Assembly: GCA_018221105.1 (NCBI GenBank)
Contig: JAAOYA010000001.1
Location: 114,812-178,811, forward strand
Reading direction: 5' to 3'
DNA length: 64,000 bases
Origin: Candidatus Woesearchaeota archaeon
GTDB taxonomy: Archaea > Nanobdellota > Nanobdellia > Woesearchaeales > JAAOYA01
Shown here: in pieces, positions 37,587 to 61,254 of the stretch
Layout: each line of letters starts with the position of its first letter
Position numbering within the stretch: position 1 is the stretch's first letter
Notes under the pieces: generated by a model
Seen by the model: only the letters and a program-made list of their open reading frames with translations
Told to the model about the DNA's origin: nothing
The model's database searches: none
Program-made: the position numbers and the translations under genes

Positions 37587-37618
37587 CTTAACAATCCCTC
37601 TGAATACTTTTTTTTTAA

Positions 37619-37714
37619 TGGGCCGGACGAGGTTCGAACTCGCGACCGCCCGATTTCATCAGCGACCAAAATCGCTTAAAAGTCGGGTGCTCTACCAGGC
37701 TGAGCTACCGGCCC
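37619..37714 (-). tRNA. tRNA-Lys (TTT) with 22-nt intron
   Basis: Acceptor GGGCCGG pairs perfectly with CCGGCCC; discriminator A at 37619; no encoded CCA. Anticodon loop CTTTTAA (anticodon TTT at 37680-37678) between stems CCCGA and TCGGG. An intron of 22 nt (37676-37655) follows position 37; it carries a GCGA-TTTTGG-TCGC hairpin. The bulge-helix-bulge is slightly relaxed (one U-U mismatch in the central helix as I pair it). Confidence 0.9.
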
Positions 37715-37725
37715 AGGACTTTAAA

Positions 37726-37817
37726 CGCCCTGGCCGGGATTTGAACCCGGGTCGGAGCCTATCCGTCCGAAAACGGTCGACAGGGCTCCATGATAGGCCA
37801 GGCTACACTACCAGGGC
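37726..37817 (-). tRNA. tRNA-Asp (GTC) with 17-nt intron
   Basis: Acceptor GCCCTGG/CCAGGGC, discriminator G, D-arm GTGTAGCC..ATCAT typical of archaeal tRNA-Asp. Anticodon loop CTGTCGA between GAGCC and GGCTC. The intron (37777-37761, 17 nt) sits after position 37: CTGT pairs with ACGG as the 4-bp central helix, bulges are C-G-A and A-T-A, and the intron closes as CCG-TTTT-CGG. This is a near-canonical bulge-helix-bulge in a very short intron. Confidence 0.92.
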
Positions 37818-37828
37818 AGCGTTTTGTT

Positions 37829-46225: not shown

Positions 46226-47536
46226 TTATACCCAGTTGACTTTTAGAAAGTGTGTTGAACAACTAAAGCACGGGTCATAACTTCTGATAAGCTTTTCTAT
46301 TTCTAGTACTAGTTTGTCATTGGACATTTTTTGTTGTGCTAGTAAGAATTCTACGTAGCCTTTGATGTCTTGTTCCATATTGCTAAGATTTTGCGCTGTT
46401 GGTGTTATAATGTTAGCGCGGATAACACGACCTTCTCGATCGAATTCGTACTCGTGAAATAATAGTCCGCGTGGCGCTTCAGTCACTGCGATGCCGTGGC
46501 CGGCTTTTACATTGACTTCTGGCAGTCCTTCAAATATGAAATCGTTCTCACTTAATAGTAATATGGCTCTTTCAATCCAATGTACAAGTTCTAGTGCTTG
46601 TGCGTAATTATTAATGAAAGGATTTTGTGATGGTATAGCGTGCTTTCCCTTAAGCAAAATTTTCTTTGCTGTAGGACTTAAAGCGTCAAGGTTTGTGTTT
46701 AATCGTGAAAGTGCTCCTACCATATATTCTTTTCCTTGTTTTGTTGCAAACTTGCTTGTGGCGTAAGGTTCTAATCGTTCTGTAACATAATCATTATAGT
46801 TTTCTTGAGGGCTACTGTGACCCCAATCACTTACTATTGTGCCTTCTAACAAACTGATTTTTTTGTCTTGGTATAATGCCATATGTTCGCACTCGCGCTC
46901 AAAAGCAGGATATTCAATTTTTGAAAATAGTTCTGCTGTTTTGATGGCTTGTGGTAGGGCTTCTTTTAAATTATCTAAGAGCATTTTTTTCTCGTCTTTA
47001 TCAGGTACTTTTGTAAATCCTCCAACTATGCATGTTACAGGGTGCATTTCTCGCCCACCAATTGTTTCTGCCATTACATTTCCTACTTTCATAAGCTGTA
47101 ATGCTCTATTGACTTCTGTTTTGTACTTTGCGGCCATTGCAATGGCGCTTTCAAAGCCAAGGTAGTCTGGCAGCGCTAAAAAGTATAAGTGTGTGGCATG
47201 ACTTCTGACGCGCTCAGCAATCGATAATAGTTCTCGCAGGATTTGTGTTTGTTCACTGACTGGCACGTCCATTGCCCGTTCTATTGCTTTTAAGCATGTC
47301 ATGTTGTGTGCTACCGAGCATATGCCGCAAATTCTGGAAGTTATCTCATTAATTTCATCGTATAATCTGTCACGAACTAATCCTTCAAAATAGCGTGCGC
47401 CTTCAATCGCGTTTAATCGACAAACTTTTACTTTGCCATTAACTATTTTCAAGTCTAGCGCTCCGTGACCTTCTACTTTACACAAGTGGTTGAGAGTGAT
47501 TTTTTTGGATTGTTTGAGAGTTTTTTTCTTTGCCAT
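46226..47536 (-). CDS. hydA: [NiFe] sulfhydrogenase alpha (large) subunit
   Basis: 436 aa. N-terminal RICGICSVAHNMTC is the L1 CxxC and C-terminal DPCFSCSTH the L2 CxxC, together four Ni/Fe-binding cysteines. The protein ends 7 residues after the conserved His (FLKVNWV), the peptide a maturation protease must remove; a candidate is encoded at 50930. Group 3b by partner genes (B, G, D). Catalyses H2 turnover with NADP(H) and possibly polysulfide, by family knowledge. Last gene of the operon. Confidence 0.96.
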   Translation of the reverse strand: MAKKKTLKQSKKITLNHLCKVEGHGALDLKIVNGKVKVCRLNAIEGARYFEGLVRDRLYDEINEITSRICGICSVAHNMTCLKAIERAMDVPVSEQTQILRELLSIAERVRSHATHLYFLALPDYLGFESAIAMAAKYKTEVNRALQLMKVGNVMAETIGGREMHPVTCIVGGFTKVPDKDEKKMLLDNLKEALPQAIKTAELFSKIEYPAFERECEHMALYQDKKISLLEGTIVSDWGHSSPQENYNDYVTERLEPYATSKFATKQGKEYMVGALSRLNTNLDALSPTAKKILLKGKHAIPSQNPFINNYAQALELVHWIERAILLLSENDFIFEGLPEVNVKAGHGIAVTEAPRGLLFHEYEFDREGRVIRANIITPTAQNLSNMEQDIKGYVEFLLAQQKMSNDKLVLEIEKLIRSYDPCFSCSTHFLKVNWV

Positions 47537-47537
47537 T

Positions 47538-48374
47538 TTATTCTCCTAAGTGTTTGTCTTTGATGCCGTGCATGTCATAACAACAGTGTGCTTCGTCGTG
47601 GTGCTCGCGGCTTTCAGGTGTGTCGATGAGTTTTTCAAATGCTAGTCCTGCGTATTTGTTTAATCGTTCTTTTGCTAGTTCTACACTAATACCTTTTTCT
47701 AATAATAAGTCAAAGTATGATTGTATGTTGGCGTCAGGTATTGGTCCGCGACAGCCTGTGCACGAGTGATTGACGCTTGGGCATAGTGCTTCACACCCAC
47801 CGTTGATTACTGGTCCCATGCATTCGCGTCCAAGTTCTAGCAAGCAATTGTTTTCTTTTAGGCTGCACTCGTGACATACTGGGTTTGGATTTTCGCGAAT
47901 TTTTTTGCCAAGCAGCACGTCTTTTAATATTGTTGTTATTTCATCGCGGTTTGGCGGGCAACCAACTATTTTAGCGTCAACAGTGACGTGCTCTGTCAGT
48001 GGTGTTGGTTTAACACTTTTGAGATGGTTTGTTTTTGCGTATGGACTGTGCACTATTTTATCATCAATAAAGTTTTTGATTGCTGGAGTGCAACCGTGAC
48101 TTGCACAAGCTCCTAGGGCGATTAAAACTTTGCTTTTCTTGCGCCACTCCACTAGTTTTTTTTTATCGTTTTGGTTTGCCACTAGTCCTTCGACAAACAA
48201 TATATCATAAGGCCCGTCAGAATTCTTGCTTTTTATCATTGGAGCGGCCACTAAATCAATAACTCCTAAGATGTCTAATAGTATGTCGCGTATAAAATAG
48301 ATTGTTAATTGGCAGCCGGCGCAACCAGTGATGCTTTGAATTCCTACTTTATACTTTTTCATTTTACTCGTCAA
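47538..48374 (-). CDS. hydD: Sulfhydrogenase delta (small) subunit
   Basis: 278 aa. TGCAGCQLTIYF carries the proximal-cluster CxxC; GACASHGC, GCPPNRDE, CHECSLKENNCLL and NGGCEALCPSVNHSCTGCRG provide the rest of the three Fe-S clusters. No Tat signal, so cytoplasmic, as expected for group 3b. One nt separates it from hydA. Confidence 0.95.
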   Translation of the reverse strand: MTSKMKKYKVGIQSITGCAGCQLTIYFIRDILLDILGVIDLVAAPMIKSKNSDGPYDILFVEGLVANQNDKKKLVEWRKKSKVLIALGACASHGCTPAIKNFIDDKIVHSPYAKTNHLKSVKPTPLTEHVTVDAKIVGCPPNRDEITTILKDVLLGKKIRENPNPVCHECSLKENNCLLELGRECMGPVINGGCEALCPSVNHSCTGCRGPIPDANIQSYFDLLLEKGISVELAKERLNKYAGLAFEKLIDTPESREHHDEAHCCYDMHGIKDKHLGE

Positions 48375-49158
48375 TTATATGCTTTATTTTGTCATAGCGA
48401 AACACTGGACCGTCACAACACACATACTTTTCTTGTACCATGCAATGGCCGCATTTGCCTGTGCCGCATTTCATGTGGCGCTCTAGCGAAACATACAATT
48501 GGTCTTCGTTAAAACCCTTAGTTTTTAGTACTTCTATGCACTTGTTGATCATCACTGGCGGTCCGCACAACGCTACAATTTTTTGTTTGTTGTCAATTGT
48601 TGATTTTTCTAATAATTGTGGCACAAATCCTACAGGACCATTCCAACCTTTTTCTTTCTTGTCAACTGTTAAGTTTACCTTGCACTCTTTTTGCCACTCT
48701 TTAATGTCTTGTTTCATCAAAATATCTTTTGGGCAGCGAAAACCAAAAAAGAATTCTAATCCTTTATATTTTTCAGGGTTTGCTTGCACGTATTTTGCAA
48801 CACCCCTAACTGGAGCTACTCCTGTGCCGCCCCCAATGATTATTACTTGATTATTTTCAAACCATTGCATAGGATAACCTGTGCCGTAAGGTCCTCGCAA
48901 GTGCAATTTGTCACCTTTGTTTAATTTGCAAAGAGCTTTTGTCACGTCTCCAACATCTCGAATTAACATTTCTAAATAATCGTCCTCGAACGACGCAACA
49001 CTTATTGGAGCTTCACCTATCGCTGGCGCCCAAACTTGAAAGAATTGTCCTGGCAAATACTTCAATCCAGGAGTTTTTAATCGAAATAAGTAAATACCTT
49101 CACATTCTTTTTGTTTACTTTCTATAACGTATGGTTTTGTCTCTAGTGTTTTTGTCAT
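48364..49158 (-). CDS. hydG: Sulfhydrogenase gamma subunit (FAD/NAD(P)-binding)
   Basis: 264 aa, ferredoxin-NADP reductase-like. LPGQFFQVWAP and GEAPISVAS are in the FAD domain; IIGGGTGVAPVRGVAKYV is the pyridine-nucleotide domain; the C-terminus has a 2Fe-2S cluster motif CGTGKCGHCMVQEKYVCCDG. Passes electrons between hydrogenase and NADP(H). Overlaps hydD by 11 nt. Confidence 0.95.
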   Translation of the reverse strand: MTKTLETKPYVIESKQKECEGIYLFRLKTPGLKYLPGQFFQVWAPAIGEAPISVASFEDDYLEMLIRDVGDVTKALCKLNKGDKLHLRGPYGTGYPMQWFENNQVIIIGGGTGVAPVRGVAKYVQANPEKYKGLEFFFGFRCPKDILMKQDIKEWQKECKVNLTVDKKEKGWNGPVGFVPQLLEKSTIDNKQKIVALCGPPVMINKCIEVLKTKGFNEDQLYVSLERHMKCGTGKCGHCMVQEKYVCCDGPVFRYDKIKHIIDE

Positions 49159-50093
49159 TTTAGTTCATTGATTGTTTTTGGCCAGTCAATAGTTTTAGGA
49201 CAGTGCTTTATGCAACGACCACAACCGGTGCACATGTGAGAGCCGTATTTTTCGGCAAAGTATTGTATTTTGTGAAACACGAAATGTCTAAAACGATTAA
49301 ATCGTGCTTCTCGAAACACGTGACCTCCTGCAACTGTTGTGAAATTTTTAAGTTGACACGAATCCCATTTTCTGACTCGCTCACCATTTTTTAGTGTTAT
49401 ATCAACAACGTCAGTGACATCAAAACATAAACAATTAGGGCATACCATTGAGCAGCGTGAACAACTAAGACAATTTTGTCTGTCTTTGTGCCAGTGCTTC
49501 TCATCAAGATAGGCTCTGATGTTGTGTTTGTTTAGCGCTCTAGTGCTTGGATAAATATCTGGCAAAGTCTCTTGCGCATCTTTTAAGTTTTTAACTAGTC
49601 GCTGTCCTTTCTCAGTTCCAATATCAACATAAAAATAGTCTCCTTTATCGACAAATAACAAATCATAGTGTCCAATGTCGTTCATGCTTTTGCAAAAAGC
49701 ATACTCGTTGCAAGATTCACTGCAAGCTAAAGCCATCAAAACAGTATTTTCACGTCGTGTTTTATAGTCCTCGTCAGGGTAATCGTTGAGGTACAATTGA
49801 TCTGTTTTTAACAAACTATTAGTATCACAAAGTCGCGCACCAAAAATAACAGTTTTTTTAGGCGTCTCAACTCCTAACAATTTGGCACCCTTAAATTTTA
49901 GTATAGGATTTTTTGGCGGCACAAAAAACTTTTTAATTCCAAAAGTTGGATTGCCCTCAAAACAGATTTCTCCAGCATCTTCTATTTCTTGAAATCGCAA
50001 CATGTCAGTAATAACAGGCCCTACTAGAATTCCGCCTTTAGAAGAATTTTTTAGAAATTTATCTAAACCCTCTTTTTCCAACCTCTTTCCCAT
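49155..50093 (-). CDS. hydB: Sulfhydrogenase beta (iron-sulfur) subunit
   Basis: 312 aa from the ATG at 50093; an in-frame start 48 nt earlier would overlap the TTTAAATA box about 25 nt upstream. Two 4Fe-4S ferredoxin motifs: CLSCSRCSMVCPNC around residue 210 and CTGCGRCIKHCPK near the C-terminus, plus further Cys (ACSESCNEYAFC) about residue 125. First gene of the B-G-D-A operon; stop overlaps hydG by ATGA. Confidence 0.94.
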   Translation of the reverse strand: MGKRLEKEGLDKFLKNSSKGGILVGPVITDMLRFQEIEDAGEICFEGNPTFGIKKFFVPPKNPILKFKGAKLLGVETPKKTVIFGARLCDTNSLLKTDQLYLNDYPDEDYKTRRENTVLMALACSESCNEYAFCKSMNDIGHYDLLFVDKGDYFYVDIGTEKGQRLVKNLKDAQETLPDIYPSTRALNKHNIRAYLDEKHWHKDRQNCLSCSRCSMVCPNCLCFDVTDVVDITLKNGERVRKWDSCQLKNFTTVAGGHVFREARFNRFRHFVFHKIQYFAEKYGSHMCTGCGRCIKHCPKTIDWPKTINELK

Positions 50094-50180
50094 GACGATA
50101 AAAAATACAATAGAGGTATTTAAAGGTTTGCAAAACAACATTGCACAATATTATTATATAACTTTTTTATTCTGGTATCG

Positions 50181-55300: not shown

Positions 55301-56386
55301 TCAATGTTCATATAATTCACGATAATGCTCGCCGCGTAACAGTTCGTAAACTTCTAATGCGCTTGGCAGATCACTTTTAGATTGTGGAATTGTTGGCTTG
55401 TCTAATTCTTCTAGCAATGGCTTCAATTGATTTCTATAAGAACTTGTGAAAACTATTCCTTTATCTGCTTGGCCATTTGAAGAGTTTATTAAAGCGTTGT
55501 ATATGCAAAAATCGTCCTTACAGCCTGATAAGCAAGTTTCTGTCGGACATTTTTTTTCACTCATTGACATCCTGTTTTTAGCAATATAAACTTCTTCACT
55601 ATTTTGCTCGAAGTGTTGTTTTATGAACTTATTCTTTATTGCTCTTCCCAAGAAATGTCTTATACAACTTCTAAACAGAATTGTTTCATTATCGCTTAAT
55701 TGTTCTAAAGTCCAATCGATTTGAGGTATTGCTTCTTGAGTTACAAAAAACGGCAATCCGTTACCTATTGATAGATGATCGTAAGGCATTATTTTTTGAT
55801 AATTATCATTGGTTATGCCTCCGCAAACAACAACATGGGTTGTAGTATCACGACTTCTAAAATCTTCTAATAATTCTTCAATTGCTCTAAACTCTTTTTG
55901 ATCTTTTAAAGTGTGACCCCCGCAACGTGTTGGATCTTCAAGCATCACGGTTTGAACTTTATAGCGTTTTATTGCAATGTTGACAGCTTTATTAGAAAGT
56001 CCTAATTTTGGAATCACATCTTTTGAAAAAGCTCCGCTTTTCTTGGCAGCTAATAATTCAGTATCAAGACCTGCAGCCATTATCATTCCGTCAACAATAT
56101 CGCTTTTATTAACAACTTGTGTTAGTTCAGAGTAATTGTCTGCTGGCACCATGATATTAACATATAATAATCCTGTGCCTTTACGATTGCCTTGCCCGTC
56201 AAACATTACGTTGCGCGCTATTTCTATTTCGTCAGTTAATTCTTGAGAATTTAATGCTGCAGCTCCAATGACGCCAACTCCTCCAAGGGTTTTGTCATCG
56301 CCTGTCGAAGCAATAGTTCCTGCTAATAATCCGCCTGCAATTTTTACTGCCGCTCCGTTTTGTACTAGTCGACCATCAAATGACAT
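55301..56386 (-). CDS. NPD-like FMN-binding TIM-barrel protein
   Basis: 361 aa. VKIAGGLLAGTIAS and GGVGVIGAAALNSQEL at the start, LLYVNIMVP, VVVCGGI and SIGNGLPF are the strand-end loops of the nitronate monooxygenase/IMPDH-type barrel. After it comes a Cys-rich patch, CPTETCLSGCKDDFC, which may bind a metal cluster, then a conserved tail. Likely an FMN oxidoreductase; substrate unknown. Confidence 0.6.
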   Translation of the reverse strand: MSFDGRLVQNGAAVKIAGGLLAGTIASTGDDKTLGGVGVIGAAALNSQELTDEIEIARNVMFDGQGNRKGTGLLYVNIMVPADNYSELTQVVNKSDIVDGMIMAAGLDTELLAAKKSGAFSKDVIPKLGLSNKAVNIAIKRYKVQTVMLEDPTRCGGHTLKDQKEFRAIEELLEDFRSRDTTTHVVVCGGITNDNYQKIMPYDHLSIGNGLPFFVTQEAIPQIDWTLEQLSDNETILFRSCIRHFLGRAIKNKFIKQHFEQNSEEVYIAKNRMSMSEKKCPTETCLSGCKDDFCIYNALINSSNGQADKGIVFTSSYRNQLKPLLEELDKPTIPQSKSDLPSALEVYELLRGEHYRELYEH

Positions 56387-57164: not shown

Positions 57165-58148
57165 TTAGCGCCAATTGACTGTTATGTCGTCAGTTCTAAG
57201 GTAAGGTTTAATACTTGCTTTTTCTATTTTCATGCTTTTCTTTGATGTGTTGTACTCTAATAGTCCTTGCCAGGCTATCATTGCAGCATTATCTATTAAG
57301 AACTCATTAGCAGGCACGAAAAGTTTTGCCCCTCGTTCTTTGCACATTATCCTGCACATTTCTTGCAATCGTTTATTGCAAGCCACACCACCACCTAAAA
57401 GCAGTTCTGCTTTGTCTGTGTGGGCTATTGCGCGCTCTGAGACTTCTACTAGCATTGCAAAAATTGTTTCTTGAACACTAAAACACAAGTCTTCTGTTGT
57501 GTGTTTACCTGTTTTAATTTTTGTTTTTAGATTAGTTAGTAATCCTCCAAATCCAACATCCATTCCTTTGACAATGTAAGGTAAATCGATTAAATTATTG
57601 CCTTTTTTGGCTAGAGCTTCTATTTTTGGCCCTGCTGGAAAACCAAGCCCTAAAGCTCTTCCAAAACTGTCAAGAAAGTTTCCAACGCCAATATCTAGTG
57701 TTTCACCAAAAACACGATATTTTTGTCCTTGGTAAGCTATTACTTGAGTGTTCGCACCACTAGCATAAAGCATTACAGGATCTTTTGTGCCGGTTAGCAT
57801 TCTGCCAATCTCTAAATGTGCAATGCAATGATTCACACCCACTAATGGTTTGTTTAATTGGATTGCGAGCGAGCGAGCGACCATGGCCCCAACTCTTAAC
57901 ATGTGACCAATTCCAGGGCTCTCAGAGTATACAATCAAGTCAACATTGGATAATTTAACATTGGCTTTTTGTAAAGCTTTAAGCAATACTGTATCAACAT
58001 TTTTGATGTGATGTTCAACAACTTTGTAAGGTATCATGCCCCCGGTTGTTGTAGAATAAGTTACTCGCTCATTTGATAAAATTCTTTTATCATCAATTAC
58101 TGCAATACCGAAAGTGTGCGCTGTGCTCTCAATTCCTAATACTATCAT
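57165..58148 (-). CDS. kae1: Kae1 (tRNA N6-threonylcarbamoyladenosine synthesis)
   Basis: 327 aa. MIVLGIESTAHTFGIAV at the N-terminus, GVNHCIAHLEIGRM with the metal-binding HxxxH, SGANTQVI and GGGVACN loops of the ASKHA fold. Transfers threonylcarbamoyl to A37 of ANN-decoding tRNAs, as part of KEOPS. The Bud32 kinase fusion seen in some archaea is absent; KEOPS partners are not in the window. Confidence 0.96.
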   Translation of the reverse strand: MIVLGIESTAHTFGIAVIDDKRILSNERVTYSTTTGGMIPYKVVEHHIKNVDTVLLKALQKANVKLSNVDLIVYSESPGIGHMLRVGAMVARSLAIQLNKPLVGVNHCIAHLEIGRMLTGTKDPVMLYASGANTQVIAYQGQKYRVFGETLDIGVGNFLDSFGRALGLGFPAGPKIEALAKKGNNLIDLPYIVKGMDVGFGGLLTNLKTKIKTGKHTTEDLCFSVQETIFAMLVEVSERAIAHTDKAELLLGGGVACNKRLQEMCRIMCKERGAKLFVPANEFLIDNAAMIAWQGLLEYNTSKKSMKIEKASIKPYLRTDDITVNWR

Positions 58149-58190
58149 TGACGTGCTAAGTTTTAAATAATATTAAAAGCTTGCTAAATC

Positions 58191-60107
58191 ATGGACGTCG
58201 AACAATTAATAAAAAAAGTTAAAGCTTATAACAGAAAAGCAAAGTTTGATTTGATCAGAAAAGCATATCTTACTGCTTTTAGAGTTCATTCTAAACAAAA
58301 ACGTGTCAGTGGAGAACCGTTTATAATTCACCCTCTTGAAACTGCAATGATACTCGCGGGACTTCACAGTGACAGCGCGACAATTGCTGCTGCATTACTT
58401 CATGATTGTCTTGAAGATGGCAGTTTAACTCTTAACCAATTAACAACTGATTTTGGCGAAGAAATAGCTCATTTAGTAGAAGGCGTTACAAAAATCAAGG
58501 ATATGGGAGCGGACCTTCCAACAAACAAAGCTGAAACAATAAGAAAAATAATTTTAGCATCAATCAAAGATGTTAGGGTTCTTTTGATAAAACTTGCTGA
58601 TCGATTGCACAATATGAGAACACTAAAAAGTTTCAAACCAGAAAAACAGCAAAGAATAGCTCGAGAAACAATCGATATTTACGCGCAAATCGCTCACAAG
58701 TTAGGAATTAATAGCATAAAACAAGAACTTGAAGATTTAAGCATGCGATACTTATGGCCTGAAGTATACCAAGATTTTAAGATGCGCATCAATAAGAAAC
58801 GCGAAGAGCGAGAAGAAGAAGTACAACAAATCATTAAACATTTAGACGCTGCGCTTAGAAAAAAAGGTGTCAAAGCAAAAATTTATGGTCGTGCTAAAGG
58901 GTTTTATGCTATTTTTAAAAAAATGATGAAAAAAAGAGTGGAGTTTAATGAAATATTTGATATTACTGCCCTAAGACTTATTGCAAAAACAATTCCTGAT
59001 TGCTACACTGCACTAGGAGTAGTTCATCAAATGTGGAAGCCTATGCCTGGAAAATTTAAAGATTATATTGCAGTGCCAAAAAGTAATGGTTATCAATCAC
59101 TGCACACAGTAGTAGTTGGTAAAGGATCAAAAATTCACGAAGTACAGATTAGAACAGAAGAAATGGATAGGATGGCTGAAGATGGTGTGGCTGCACACTG
59201 GCGCTACAAAGAAGTAGCGCGTGACAAGTACTTTGAGCGAAAAATTAATTGGATTAAACAAGTTCTTGATTGGAAACAACAATCTGAAAGCGCGCAAGAG
59301 TTCATCGACACATTAAAAGTTGACTTGTTTAAAGACGAAATAGTAGTTTTTACGCCAAAAGGCGATCCTGTTTCACTACCTGAAAAGTCTACACCAATAG
59401 ATTTCGCGTACGAGGTGCACACTGAAGTTGGCAATAAGGCAGCAAAAGCAATGGTCAACAATAAATTAGTACCTCTTGATACAATATTAAAAAGTGGCGA
59501 TATAGTGCAGATTTTGACGGCGAAAAACGCTAAGCCTTCACGCCAATGGCTAAAATTTGTTGTGACAAACCTCGCACGCTCCAAGATACGCTCAAAACTT
59601 GGAATAACAACAGATTATGACCCTAAAAAAGCACGTTCAAAAAAACAAGCTGTTAGTACTGGAGCAGAATTATTGAACAATTTAGTTTTTGAGGGTAAAC
59701 AATCACTTTTGAAACTTTCAAAGTGTTGCAGCCCACAATACGGTGATAAAATAATGGCTTTTAAAACAAAAGATGGCAAAATAACAGTCCATAAAGCTAG
59801 TTGTCCAAATATTCACGCCCTAAAATCAACACGAGAAGTTCCAGTAGCTTGGAAGCTTGACGAACAAACAGGAACAGTCTACGAAGTGCTAGTAAGCGTT
59901 GATGATCGTATTGGAATGCTTGCGGACTTATTAAACATTATTTCAAGTCATAACATCAATGTTTTAGAGCTTAAGACCAAGACTCGTAAAAAAAGTATTA
60001 CTAACACTTTCAAGCTAGAATTACAAAAATTTCATGAAATACGAGACTTGCTAAAAGACTTGAAAAGAATTCGTAACGTGTTAGGTGTTGAAGCAAAAAA
60101 ATTATAA
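58191..60107 (+). CDS. Long RelA/SpoT homologue, (p)ppGpp hydrolase-synthetase
   Basis: 638 aa with all domains of a bacterial long RSH. HD hydrolase: H47, LLHDCLEDG (H71, D72, E75, D76) and DRLHN (N141). Synthetase: GRAKGFYAIFKKM, GKFKDYIAVPKSNGYQSLHT, EVQIRTEEMD; KFKD fits the bifunctional RxKD class. Then TGS (about 380-445), a zinc-finger-type region with SKCCSPQYGDKIMAF and VHKASCPN, and an ACT domain (about 565-638). Every hydrolase and synthetase motif I looked for is intact. Confidence 0.93.
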   Translation: MDVEQLIKKVKAYNRKAKFDLIRKAYLTAFRVHSKQKRVSGEPFIIHPLETAMILAGLHSDSATIAAALLHDCLEDGSLTLNQLTTDFGEEIAHLVEGVTKIKDMGADLPTNKAETIRKIILASIKDVRVLLIKLADRLHNMRTLKSFKPEKQQRIARETIDIYAQIAHKLGINSIKQELEDLSMRYLWPEVYQDFKMRINKKREEREEEVQQIIKHLDAALRKKGVKAKIYGRAKGFYAIFKKMMKKRVEFNEIFDITALRLIAKTIPDCYTALGVVHQMWKPMPGKFKDYIAVPKSNGYQSLHTVVVGKGSKIHEVQIRTEEMDRMAEDGVAAHWRYKEVARDKYFERKINWIKQVLDWKQQSESAQEFIDTLKVDLFKDEIVVFTPKGDPVSLPEKSTPIDFAYEVHTEVGNKAAKAMVNNKLVPLDTILKSGDIVQILTAKNAKPSRQWLKFVVTNLARSKIRSKLGITTDYDPKKARSKKQAVSTGAELLNNLVFEGKQSLLKLSKCCSPQYGDKIMAFKTKDGKITVHKASCPNIHALKSTREVPVAWKLDEQTGTVYEVLVSVDDRIGMLADLLNIISSHNINVLELKTKTRKKSITNTFKLELQKFHEIRDLLKDLKRIRNVLGVEAKKL

Positions 60108-60186: not shown

Positions 60187-61254
60187 ATGGTTAACAACCA
60201 CATCAAAAAAAGGGGCAAAAAACATGGGTTGCCGCCAGGGACGCTGATCCATGTTGGAGAGAAAAAATCTGAAAAAGTAAAGCTTACTTTAGTAGATTAT
60301 AATGAAAAAATATTCAAAGAGTTCAACCCTGAGCGCGTCGAAGAATGTTTCACTTACAAAAATAAAAAAACAGTCACATGGGTTAATGTTGATGGATTGC
60401 ACGATGTTAAAACTATTGAAAAAATAGGTGAGTGTTTCCAATTACACCCTCTGGTTCTCGAAGACTTATTAAACACTGATCAAAGGCCAAAAGTTGAAGA
60501 TTATGGCGATTACCTATTTTTTGTATTAAAACTGTTCTATCATGATGAAGACGAAAAAGAAATTATTGTAGAGCAAGTCAGCATTGTGCTTGGAGAAGAT
60601 TTTGTCATAAGCTTTCAAGAACAACCAAGCGATGTTTTTAACAATTTAAAAGATCGCATTAGCCAATCAAAGGGACGTATTAGAAAAGCAGGGGCAGATT
60701 ATTTAGTGTACTCTTTACTGGACACTATTGTGGATCATTATTTTCTAGTTTTAGAAAAAGTTGGAGAACAATTAGGTGTTGTTGAAGAAAGACTAACGCG
60801 CGATCCAACGCCTAAAGCGTTGAAAGTTTTACAAAGTTTAAAGCGAGACATGATATTTTTGCGAAAAGCAATCTGGCCAGTTAGAGAAGTTATCGCTGGC
60901 TTTGAGCGCGCAACAGAAAAACTACTCAAAAAAAGTACAGGATTATACTTGCGCGATGTTCACGACCACACAGTACAAGTCATTGATACAATAGAGACTT
61001 TTCGCGATATGATTGGCGGAATGCAAGATATTTACCTTTCAAGTCTTAGTCATAAAATGAACGAAGTGATGAAAGTATTAACAGCTATATCAACAATTTT
61101 TATTCCCTTAACACTTATAGCCAGCATTTACGGAATGAATTTTAAGTACATGCCAGAACTAAACTGGCGTTACGGCTACATAGGAGTCATGAGTTTCATG
61201 CTAGTCATAGGATTGTTGCTAGCATATTATTTTAAGAAAAAAGAGTGGTTATGA
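60187..61254 (+). CDS. corA: CorA-family Mg2+ transporter
   Basis: 355 aa. A cytoplasmic N-terminal domain with long helices, then two C-terminal membrane helices separated by the GMN signature in SIYGMNFKYMPE (TM1 about 295-315, TM2 about 330-350). Ends KKKEWL. Forms pentameric Mg2+/Co2+ channels by family knowledge. Confidence 0.95.
   Translation: MVNNHIKKRGKKHGLPPGTLIHVGEKKSEKVKLTLVDYNEKIFKEFNPERVEECFTYKNKKTVTWVNVDGLHDVKTIEKIGECFQLHPLVLEDLLNTDQRPKVEDYGDYLFFVLKLFYHDEDEKEIIVEQVSIVLGEDFVISFQEQPSDVFNNLKDRISQSKGRIRKAGADYLVYSLLDTIVDHYFLVLEKVGEQLGVVEERLTRDPTPKALKVLQSLKRDMIFLRKAIWPVREVIAGFERATEKLLKKSTGLYLRDVHDHTVQVIDTIETFRDMIGGMQDIYLSSLSHKMNEVMKVLTAISTIFIPLTLIASIYGMNFKYMPELNWRYGYIGVMSFMLVIGLLLAYYFKKKEWL

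What the first reader, a model, noticed from the sequence alone, without database searches (positions are those of the whole stretch)
58191..60107. Full-length bacterial-type RelA/SpoT in an archaeon
The HD, synthetase, TGS, Cys-rich and ACT domains occur in order with hydrolase (HD..ED, N) and synthetase (KFKD, YQSLH, EVQIRT) motifs intact. Archaea are generally regarded as lacking a classical long RSH and stringent response. The neighbours (kae1, corA) are chromosomal and archaeal, arguing against contamination. It suggests acquired (p)ppGpp signalling.
Basis: partly seen in the sequence, partly recalled or inferred. Interest (0 to 1): 0.65.

Follow-up and report, generated by a model that had tools for sequence, protein, structure and literature searches.

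The report
Archaeal Rel stringent-response enzyme, shortened
A small archaeon carries an apparently working two-way enzyme for the bacterial starvation signal (p)ppGpp; it is no contaminant or oddity but one of a large archaeal family, already reported in outline in 2021, whose sampled members all lack one regulatory domain that the bacterial versions have.

Summary
Window 58191-60107 (+) encodes a 638-aa long RelA/SpoT homologue (RSH) with HD, synthetase, TGS, Cys-rich (CC/ZFD) and ACT domains in order. Every catalytic residue checked is present, so it is of the bifunctional Rel type.

It is truly archaeal. It shares a contig with an archaeal 16S/23S operon and, in the window, archaeal RNA polymerase genes. 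It stands head-to-head with kae1, as in 12 other genomes of 7 families.

It is not exceptional. About 121 of 371 genomes of the phylum carry a long RSH, and a 2021 comparative study (PMC8407392) already reported RelA/SpoT in 41.7% of Woesearchaeota, 69% of Diapherotrites and others, inferred to come from bacteria.

New here, as far as the searched literature shows: all 90 archaeal proteins examined lack the core of the helical (HEL/AH) domain between TGS and the Cys-rich domain (TGS-His to Cys spacing 92-109 residues, against 158-192 in 20 bacterial ones). They form one clade against the bacteria sampled (100/99 support). A subclade lost the hydrolase site, paralleling bacterial RelA.

Best mechanism: starvation-triggered (p)ppGpp synthesis on the archaeal ribosome, with hydrolysis otherwise. 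Enzyme activity is inferred, not shown.

The parts
58191..60107 (+). rel: long RelA/SpoT homologue, 638 aa, bifunctional (p)ppGpp synthetase/hydrolase type, lacking the helical-domain core
   Evidence: ORF; Pfam/NCBIfam; PDB sequence matches to Rel/RelA; AlphaFold model, pLDDT 86.9, matching Rel/RelA/SpoT structures
58272..58709 (+). HD (ppGpp hydrolase) domain, aa 28-173; R38, H47, H71, D72, E75, D76, D137 and N141 all present
   Evidence: Pfam HD_4; residue table
58887..59213 (+). Synthetase domain, aa 233-341; R234, K236, D257, KFKD 288-291, K297, Y301, H305, E317, Q319 and R321 all present
   Evidence: Pfam RelA_SpoT; residue table
59340..59519 (+). TGS domain, aa 384-443, with the tRNA-CCA-reading histidine (H410)
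   Evidence: Pfam TGS; H410 is invariant in all 20 bacterial and all archaeal rows
59520..59723 (+). Short linker, aa 444-511, where bacterial Rel has the helical (HEL/AH) domain; the domain core is missing
   Evidence: Alignment spans; TGS-His to CC-Cys spacing; low-confidence segment 479-489 in the model
59724..59804 (+). Cys-rich domain (CC/ZFD/RIS) core, aa 512-538: C512, C513, H534, C538
   Evidence: Residue table
59889..60092 (+). ACT/RRM domain, aa 567-634
   Evidence: Pfam ACT_4
58149..58190 (.). 42-bp divergent intergenic region with an A/T-rich, TATA-like block about 58161-58178 that could serve both genes (inference from sequence only)
   Evidence: Sequence
57165..58148 (-). kae1 (archaeal tRNA t6A enzyme), divergent neighbour of rel, an arrangement conserved in 12 related genomes
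   Evidence: TIGR03722 arch_KAE1 440 bits, cut-off 375; synteny
60187..61254 (+). corA, Mg2+ transporter, downstream neighbour; not found beside rel in the related loci
   Evidence: TIGR00383 324.5 bits; neighbour search

Best explanation
The gene encodes a bifunctional Rel stringent factor native to this DPANN-type archaeon. Shown: all catalytic residues checked in both enzyme domains, the tRNA-CCA histidine of TGS and the ribosome-docking cysteines are present; the family persists across the phylum; all sampled archaeal members lack the helical-domain core. Inferred: a bacterial Rel was acquired once, before the sampled orders of this class diverged, and lost the helical domain then or in the donor. 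[quoted passage not shown] the synthetase then makes (p)ppGpp from GTP/GDP and ATP. Off the ribosome the HD domain removes it. Because the helical domain that contacts the tRNA D-stem is missing, tRNA reading would rest on TGS and a short linker. Targets are likely GTP-binding translation factors and purine enzymes rather than the bacterial RNA-polymerase route.
For: Domains and family score. Intact catalytic, TGS and CC residues. AlphaFold model matches Rel/RelA/SpoT structures. Archaeal 16S/23S on the contig and archaeal RNAP in the window. Presence in about 121 of 371 genomes. One archaeal clade, 100/99. TGS-His to CC-Cys spacing 92-109 in 90 archaeal rows against 158-192 in 20 bacterial. 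Conserved kae1-rel divergence. Domain roles on the ribosome are from PMC7058999 and PMC4974054. No second RSH domain was found in this genome, so one protein must do both reactions.
Against: No archaeon has been shown to make (p)ppGpp; measurements in Haloferax and Sulfolobus found none, but these lack RSH genes (PMC8646023). The helical domain contacts A-site tRNA in E. coli RelA (PMC4974054) and supports the hydrolase state in SpoT (PMC9974481), so its loss could alter or abolish ribosome control. The donor and the point of domain loss are unresolved, because bacterial sampling missed Patescibacteria, Chloroflexota, Cyanobacteria and others.
Confidence: 0.62

Rival explanations
1. It is an active Rel, but ribosome sensing was lost with the helical domain; (p)ppGpp levels are set by other inputs (ligands of the ACT domain, partner proteins), as in SpoT-like enzymes.
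For: Helical core missing in all 90 archaeal rows. A. baumannii SpoT is ribosome-independent (PMC9974481). Partner-protein control is known for Rel (DarB; abstract of PMC9848473).
Against: The TGS CCA-reading histidine and the Cys-rich motif, whose known roles are on the ribosome, are kept almost without exception in the archaeal rows.
Confidence: 0.27
2. It is a bacterial contaminant or chimeric contig.
For: The protein family is bacterial in origin.
Against: Archaeal 16S/23S on the same contig; archaeal rpoA1/rpoB in the window; conserved kae1 synteny in 12 other assemblies; nearest relatives are archaeal at 50-54% identity; no GC break; 0.2% contamination estimate.
Confidence: 0.01
3. It is a recent, isolated transfer from a bacterium into this one archaeal lineage.
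For: Patchy presence across the phylum: about a third of genomes.
Against: The window protein lies deep inside an archaeal clade, shares the helical-domain loss with it, and shares kae1 synteny across families.
Confidence: 0.02
4. The enzyme acts mainly on another substrate pair (for example making pppApp, or as an effector towards a host cell) and not in a starvation response.
For: DPANN archaea are mostly thought to be host-dependent, and Methylobacterium RSH makes pppApp as well as ppGpp (title of PMC6491832).
Against: Rel catalytic residues and nearly the full set of Rel regulatory modules are kept. Secretion signals were not searched for.
Confidence: 0.08

Closest known systems
Bifunctional Rel of Bacillus subtilis / Staphylococcus aureus / Thermus thermophilus (PDB 6yxa, 7oiw, 6s2t)
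   Same: HD, synthetase and TGS domains at about 42-48% identity; the same catalytic residues; basic RXKD-type motif (here KFKD)
   Different: Lacks the helical-domain core; about 100 aa shorter than most bacterial proteins sampled; encoded by an archaeon
RelA/SpoT of DPANN archaea reported in mSystems 2021 (PMC8407392)
   Same: Same kind of gene in the same kind of organism; origin from Bacteria inferred there too
   Different: The text read there gives presence percentages and inferred origin only; it does not describe the domain loss, the kae1 pairing or the hydrolase-dead branch
E. coli RelA (PDB 5iqr, 5kpv)
   Same: Best Foldseek hit; TGS, Cys-rich and ACT modules for ribosome-based sensing
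   Different: RelA has a dead hydrolase, an EXDD-type motif and a helical domain; the window protein has an intact hydrolase and no helical core
Acinetobacter baumannii SpoT (PDB 7qpr)
   Same: Full-length fold match; HD kept
   Different: SpoT there is hydrolase-only and has the helical domain (PMC9974481); the window synthetase motifs are intact

Membership tests
Long RSH (Rel/RelA/SpoT) | HD and synthetase domains in one chain, in that order | tested here: met
   Pfam HD_4 and RelA_SpoT; TIGR00691 682.8 bits over cut-off 499.2. Atkinson 2011 defines long RSHs as SYNTH plus HD with or without further C-terminal domains (PMC3153485).
Long RSH, canonical four-domain C-terminus | C-terminal TGS, helical, Cys-rich (CC/ZFD) and ACT/RRM domains | tested here: not met
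   TGS, CC and ACT are present; the helical-domain core is absent. Membership in long RSH stands under the Atkinson definition; only the canonical C-terminus fails.
Bifunctional Rel subgroup | Intact hydrolase residues (R, H, HDxxED, D, N) | tested here: met
   R38, H47, H71, D72, E75, D76, D137, N141
Bifunctional Rel subgroup | Intact synthetase residues with basic RXKD-type motif | tested here: met
   R234, K236, D257, KFKD, K297, Y301, H305, E317, Q319, R321
Bifunctional Rel subgroup | Measured (p)ppGpp synthesis and hydrolysis | not testable with these tools
   Needs purified protein
Ribosome-dependent stringent factor | TGS histidine reading the CCA end and conserved Cys pair for the A-site finger | tested here: met
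   H410, C512, C513; roles from PMC7058999
Ribosome-dependent stringent factor | Activation by starved ribosomes | not testable with these tools
   Needs archaeal ribosome assay
Archaeal (DPANN) RelA/SpoT of PMC8407392 | Archaeal host genome and membership in the archaeal clade | tested here: met
   Archaeal SSU on same contig; archaeal clade 100/99. The DPANN/Woesearchaeota name itself is inference, as genomes here are unnamed.

The most novel reading that the evidence does not exclude
A large archaeal lineage runs a real stringent response with its own Rel architecture. Rel without the helical domain senses deacylated tRNA on archaeal ribosomes, and the family has split again into bifunctional Rel and hydrolase-dead, RelA-like synthetases, independently of the RelA/SpoT split in proteobacteria.
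Probability: 0.4. Interest if true: 0.75.

Novelty: new variant of a known kind. Interest (0 to 1): 0.42.

Why it matters
(p)ppGpp has been looked for in several archaea and not found (PMC8646023). If the enzymes of this family work, the stringent response exists in a whole archaeal radiation, must act without bacterial RNA-polymerase contacts, and works with a Rel that dispenses with a domain thought to help read tRNA. That makes both the existence of archaeal (p)ppGpp and the need for the helical domain directly testable with one recombinant protein.

Tried and rejected
Contamination/chimera: rejected by the archaeal rRNA operon, archaeal RNAP and conserved synteny.

Single-protein scan of genome contigs found only 5 relatives, mostly proteobacterial, and no named archaeon. 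Single-protein viral-contig scan found nothing. Alignment-based viral scan found 26 loci, nearly all with normal helical spacing where the region is complete; one (L162, seemingly Bacteroidota-associated) also lacks the domain but has a degenerate synthetase, so the loss is not unique to archaea.

Centring genome search on a bacterial locus was not possible, so Patescibacteria, Chloroflexota, Cyanobacteria and other possible donors were not sampled. The donor is therefore not named.

AU test on the 110-row tree did not finish. The quick 110-row tree left one long-branch archaeal row (L070) beside the bacteria; the careful 46-row tree put it with the archaea. The tree columns over the missing domain were left out, so the domain loss is independent support.

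Full report
WHAT IS THERE. The ORF at 58191..60107 (+) is 638 aa. Pfam gives HD_4, RelA_SpoT, TGS and ACT_4 in that order; NCBIfam places it in TIGR00691 spoT_relA at 682.8 bits, cut-off 499.2. The best PDB matches by sequence are long Rel proteins (8fr8, 6yxa of B. subtilis, 7oiw of S. aureus), down to E = 5.5e-146. This is far beyond chance.

CATALYTIC STATE. On an alignment of the window protein, 89 archaeal and 20 bacterial relatives, the window protein has every hydrolase residue checked (R38, H47, H71, D72, E75, D76, D137, N141) and every synthetase residue checked (R234, K236, D257, KFKD, K297, Y301, H305, E317, Q319, R321), the TGS histidine H410, and the Cys-rich residues C512, C513, H534 and C538. 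The KFKD motif is the basic RXKD type found here in bacterial bifunctional Rel, not the EXDD type seen in Alteromonas RelA. The AlphaFold model has mean pLDDT 86.9; the two catalytic domains and the C-terminal modules are well predicted, while their mutual placement is not (pTM 0.56). Foldseek finds RelA, Rel and SpoT structures as the top hits.

HOST AND CONTAMINATION. The genome is 1.15 Mb in 11 contigs, 92% complete, 0.2% contamination. The same contig carries, about 35 kb from rel, a 16S gene that fits the archaeal SSU model at 1458.7 bits (the archaeal model wins over the rest of its clan) next to an archaeal LSU gene. The window has archaeal RNA polymerase A' and split B''/B' genes above curated cut-offs, and kae1 next door is the archaeal form. 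GC is even across the region.

IT IS WIDESPREAD. In 371 genomes of the phylum, about 121 (counted by hand from the table, E below about 1e-55) carry a long RSH; the closest are 50-54% identical to the window protein. In 12 loci from 7 family groups kae1 stands upstream of rel in the opposite direction, as in the window (in one there is room for another gene between them, and one kae1 is partial). The corA neighbour is not conserved. So the locus is old and chromosomal.

ONE CLADE AND ONE DOMAIN LOSS. In a careful maximum-likelihood tree of 46 proteins, with the columns over the missing domain left out, the 29 archaeal proteins are one side of a branch with support 100/99. The larger quick tree agrees except for one long-branch archaeal row. 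Independently, the spacing from the TGS histidine to the first Cys of the Cys-rich domain is 92-109 residues in all 90 archaeal proteins and 158-192 in all 20 bacterial ones. The missing part is the core of the helical domain (HEL, or AH). In E. [quoted passage not shown] In A. baumannii SpoT it gives additional support, via the Core, to the hydrolase conformation (PMC9974481). One 'viral' contig (L162) that looks Bacteroidota-associated lacks it too, with a degenerate synthetase, so the loss can happen independently. Whether it happened in the archaeal ancestor or in an unsampled bacterial donor is open.

A RELA-LIKE BRANCH IN ARCHAEA. In 30 of 90 archaeal proteins the hydrolase residues are degraded while a basic-type synthetase motif remains; most form one subclade (families f10, f35, f80, f64, f6, f7) in which D of HDxxED is mostly G. 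Two further rows with lost hydrolase residues have other synthetase motifs. One genome, G054, has both an intact copy, with a partial kae1 upstream, and a degraded copy near glycolytic genes. About 12 of 46 genomes, chosen as carriers of a degraded-type Rel, encode a separate small HD protein over the family cut-off, against 3 to 5 of 60 with mostly intact Rel; all six genomes of genus g183 do (my counts, not corrected for relatedness). Twenty intact-hydrolase proteins carry an acidic residue in the RXKD position, so the bacterial link between EXDD and a dead hydrolase does not hold here. The window protein belongs to the intact, basic-motif group.

MECHANISM. Shown: gene, motifs, family, host. 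From published work on bacterial proteins: TGS reads the CCA end of deacylated A-site tRNA through its histidine, and the Cys-rich and ACT domains hold the A-site finger (PMC7058999). Inferred: the archaeal protein does the same on archaeal ribosomes, with a short linker instead of the helical domain, and hydrolyses (p)ppGpp when not bound. As no other RSH domain was found in the genome (the genome is 92% complete), both activities would come from this protein. The target side is unknown; GTP-binding translation factors and purine enzymes are my guess from general knowledge.

KNOWN OR NEW. Atkinson et al. 2011 found only small RSHs in archaea and listed long RSHs as lacking there (PMC3153485). 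I found no text describing the family-wide domain loss, the kae1 pairing or the RelA-like branch, but only open-licence papers were searched. (p)ppGpp was not found in Haloferax or Sulfolobus, which have no RSH (PMC8646023); nothing found in the searches tests an RSH-bearing archaeon.

VERDICT. Observation confirmed; interpretation partly supported: real, archaeal, bacterial in origin, but common in its phylum and published. The added value is the shared architecture variant and the test case it offers.

Noticed in passing
L062-L096 (e.g. L077:3486-5414, L082:3513-5459, L091:3543-5453): A subclade of archaeal Rel has lost the hydrolase site (HDxxED degraded, mostly HG) but kept the synthetase residues: an apparent RelA-like specialisation independent of proteobacterial RelA. 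Most of these genomes show no separate small alarmone hydrolase, so how they remove (p)ppGpp is unexplained.
   Followed up: partly
G054 (L056 and L082): One genome carries both an intact bifunctional Rel (with a partial kae1 upstream) and a hydrolase-dead Rel near GAPDH and enolase, resembling the SpoT/RelA pair of gammaproteobacteria.
   Followed up: partly
Genomes G292, G216, G295, G224, G153, G251 (genus group g183): All six genomes of this genus with a strongly degraded Rel hydrolase domain also encode a separate small HD_4 protein of 182-206 aa, a candidate compensating small alarmone hydrolase.
   Followed up: partly
families f4, f65, f76 (e.g. L026, L044, L063): Rel proteins with intact hydrolase but an acidic (EFDD/RFDD-like) synthetase motif, a combination that breaks the bacterial pairing of EXDD with dead hydrolase.
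   Followed up: no
L162:3908-5785 (+): A contig in the viral collection, by content Bacteroidota-like, encodes a 625-aa long RSH that also lacks the helical domain, with intact hydrolase and degenerate synthetase motifs: an independent loss.
   Followed up: partly
window 55301-56386 (-): 361-aa protein that looks like a TIM-barrel nitronate-monooxygenase type by eye but has no Pfam or NCBIfam hit at the thresholds used.
   Followed up: no
window 37618-37818 (-): ARAGORN reports a tRNA-Leu with anticodon AAG (unusual in archaea) and a neighbouring tRNA with a four-base anticodon call; probably prediction artefacts or intron-bearing tRNAs.
   Followed up: no
window 46226-50138 (-): Genes resembling sulfhydrogenase/sulfite reductase subunits (HydA/HydB-like, below curated cut-offs), suggesting a soluble NiFe hydrogenase in this small genome.
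   Followed up: no
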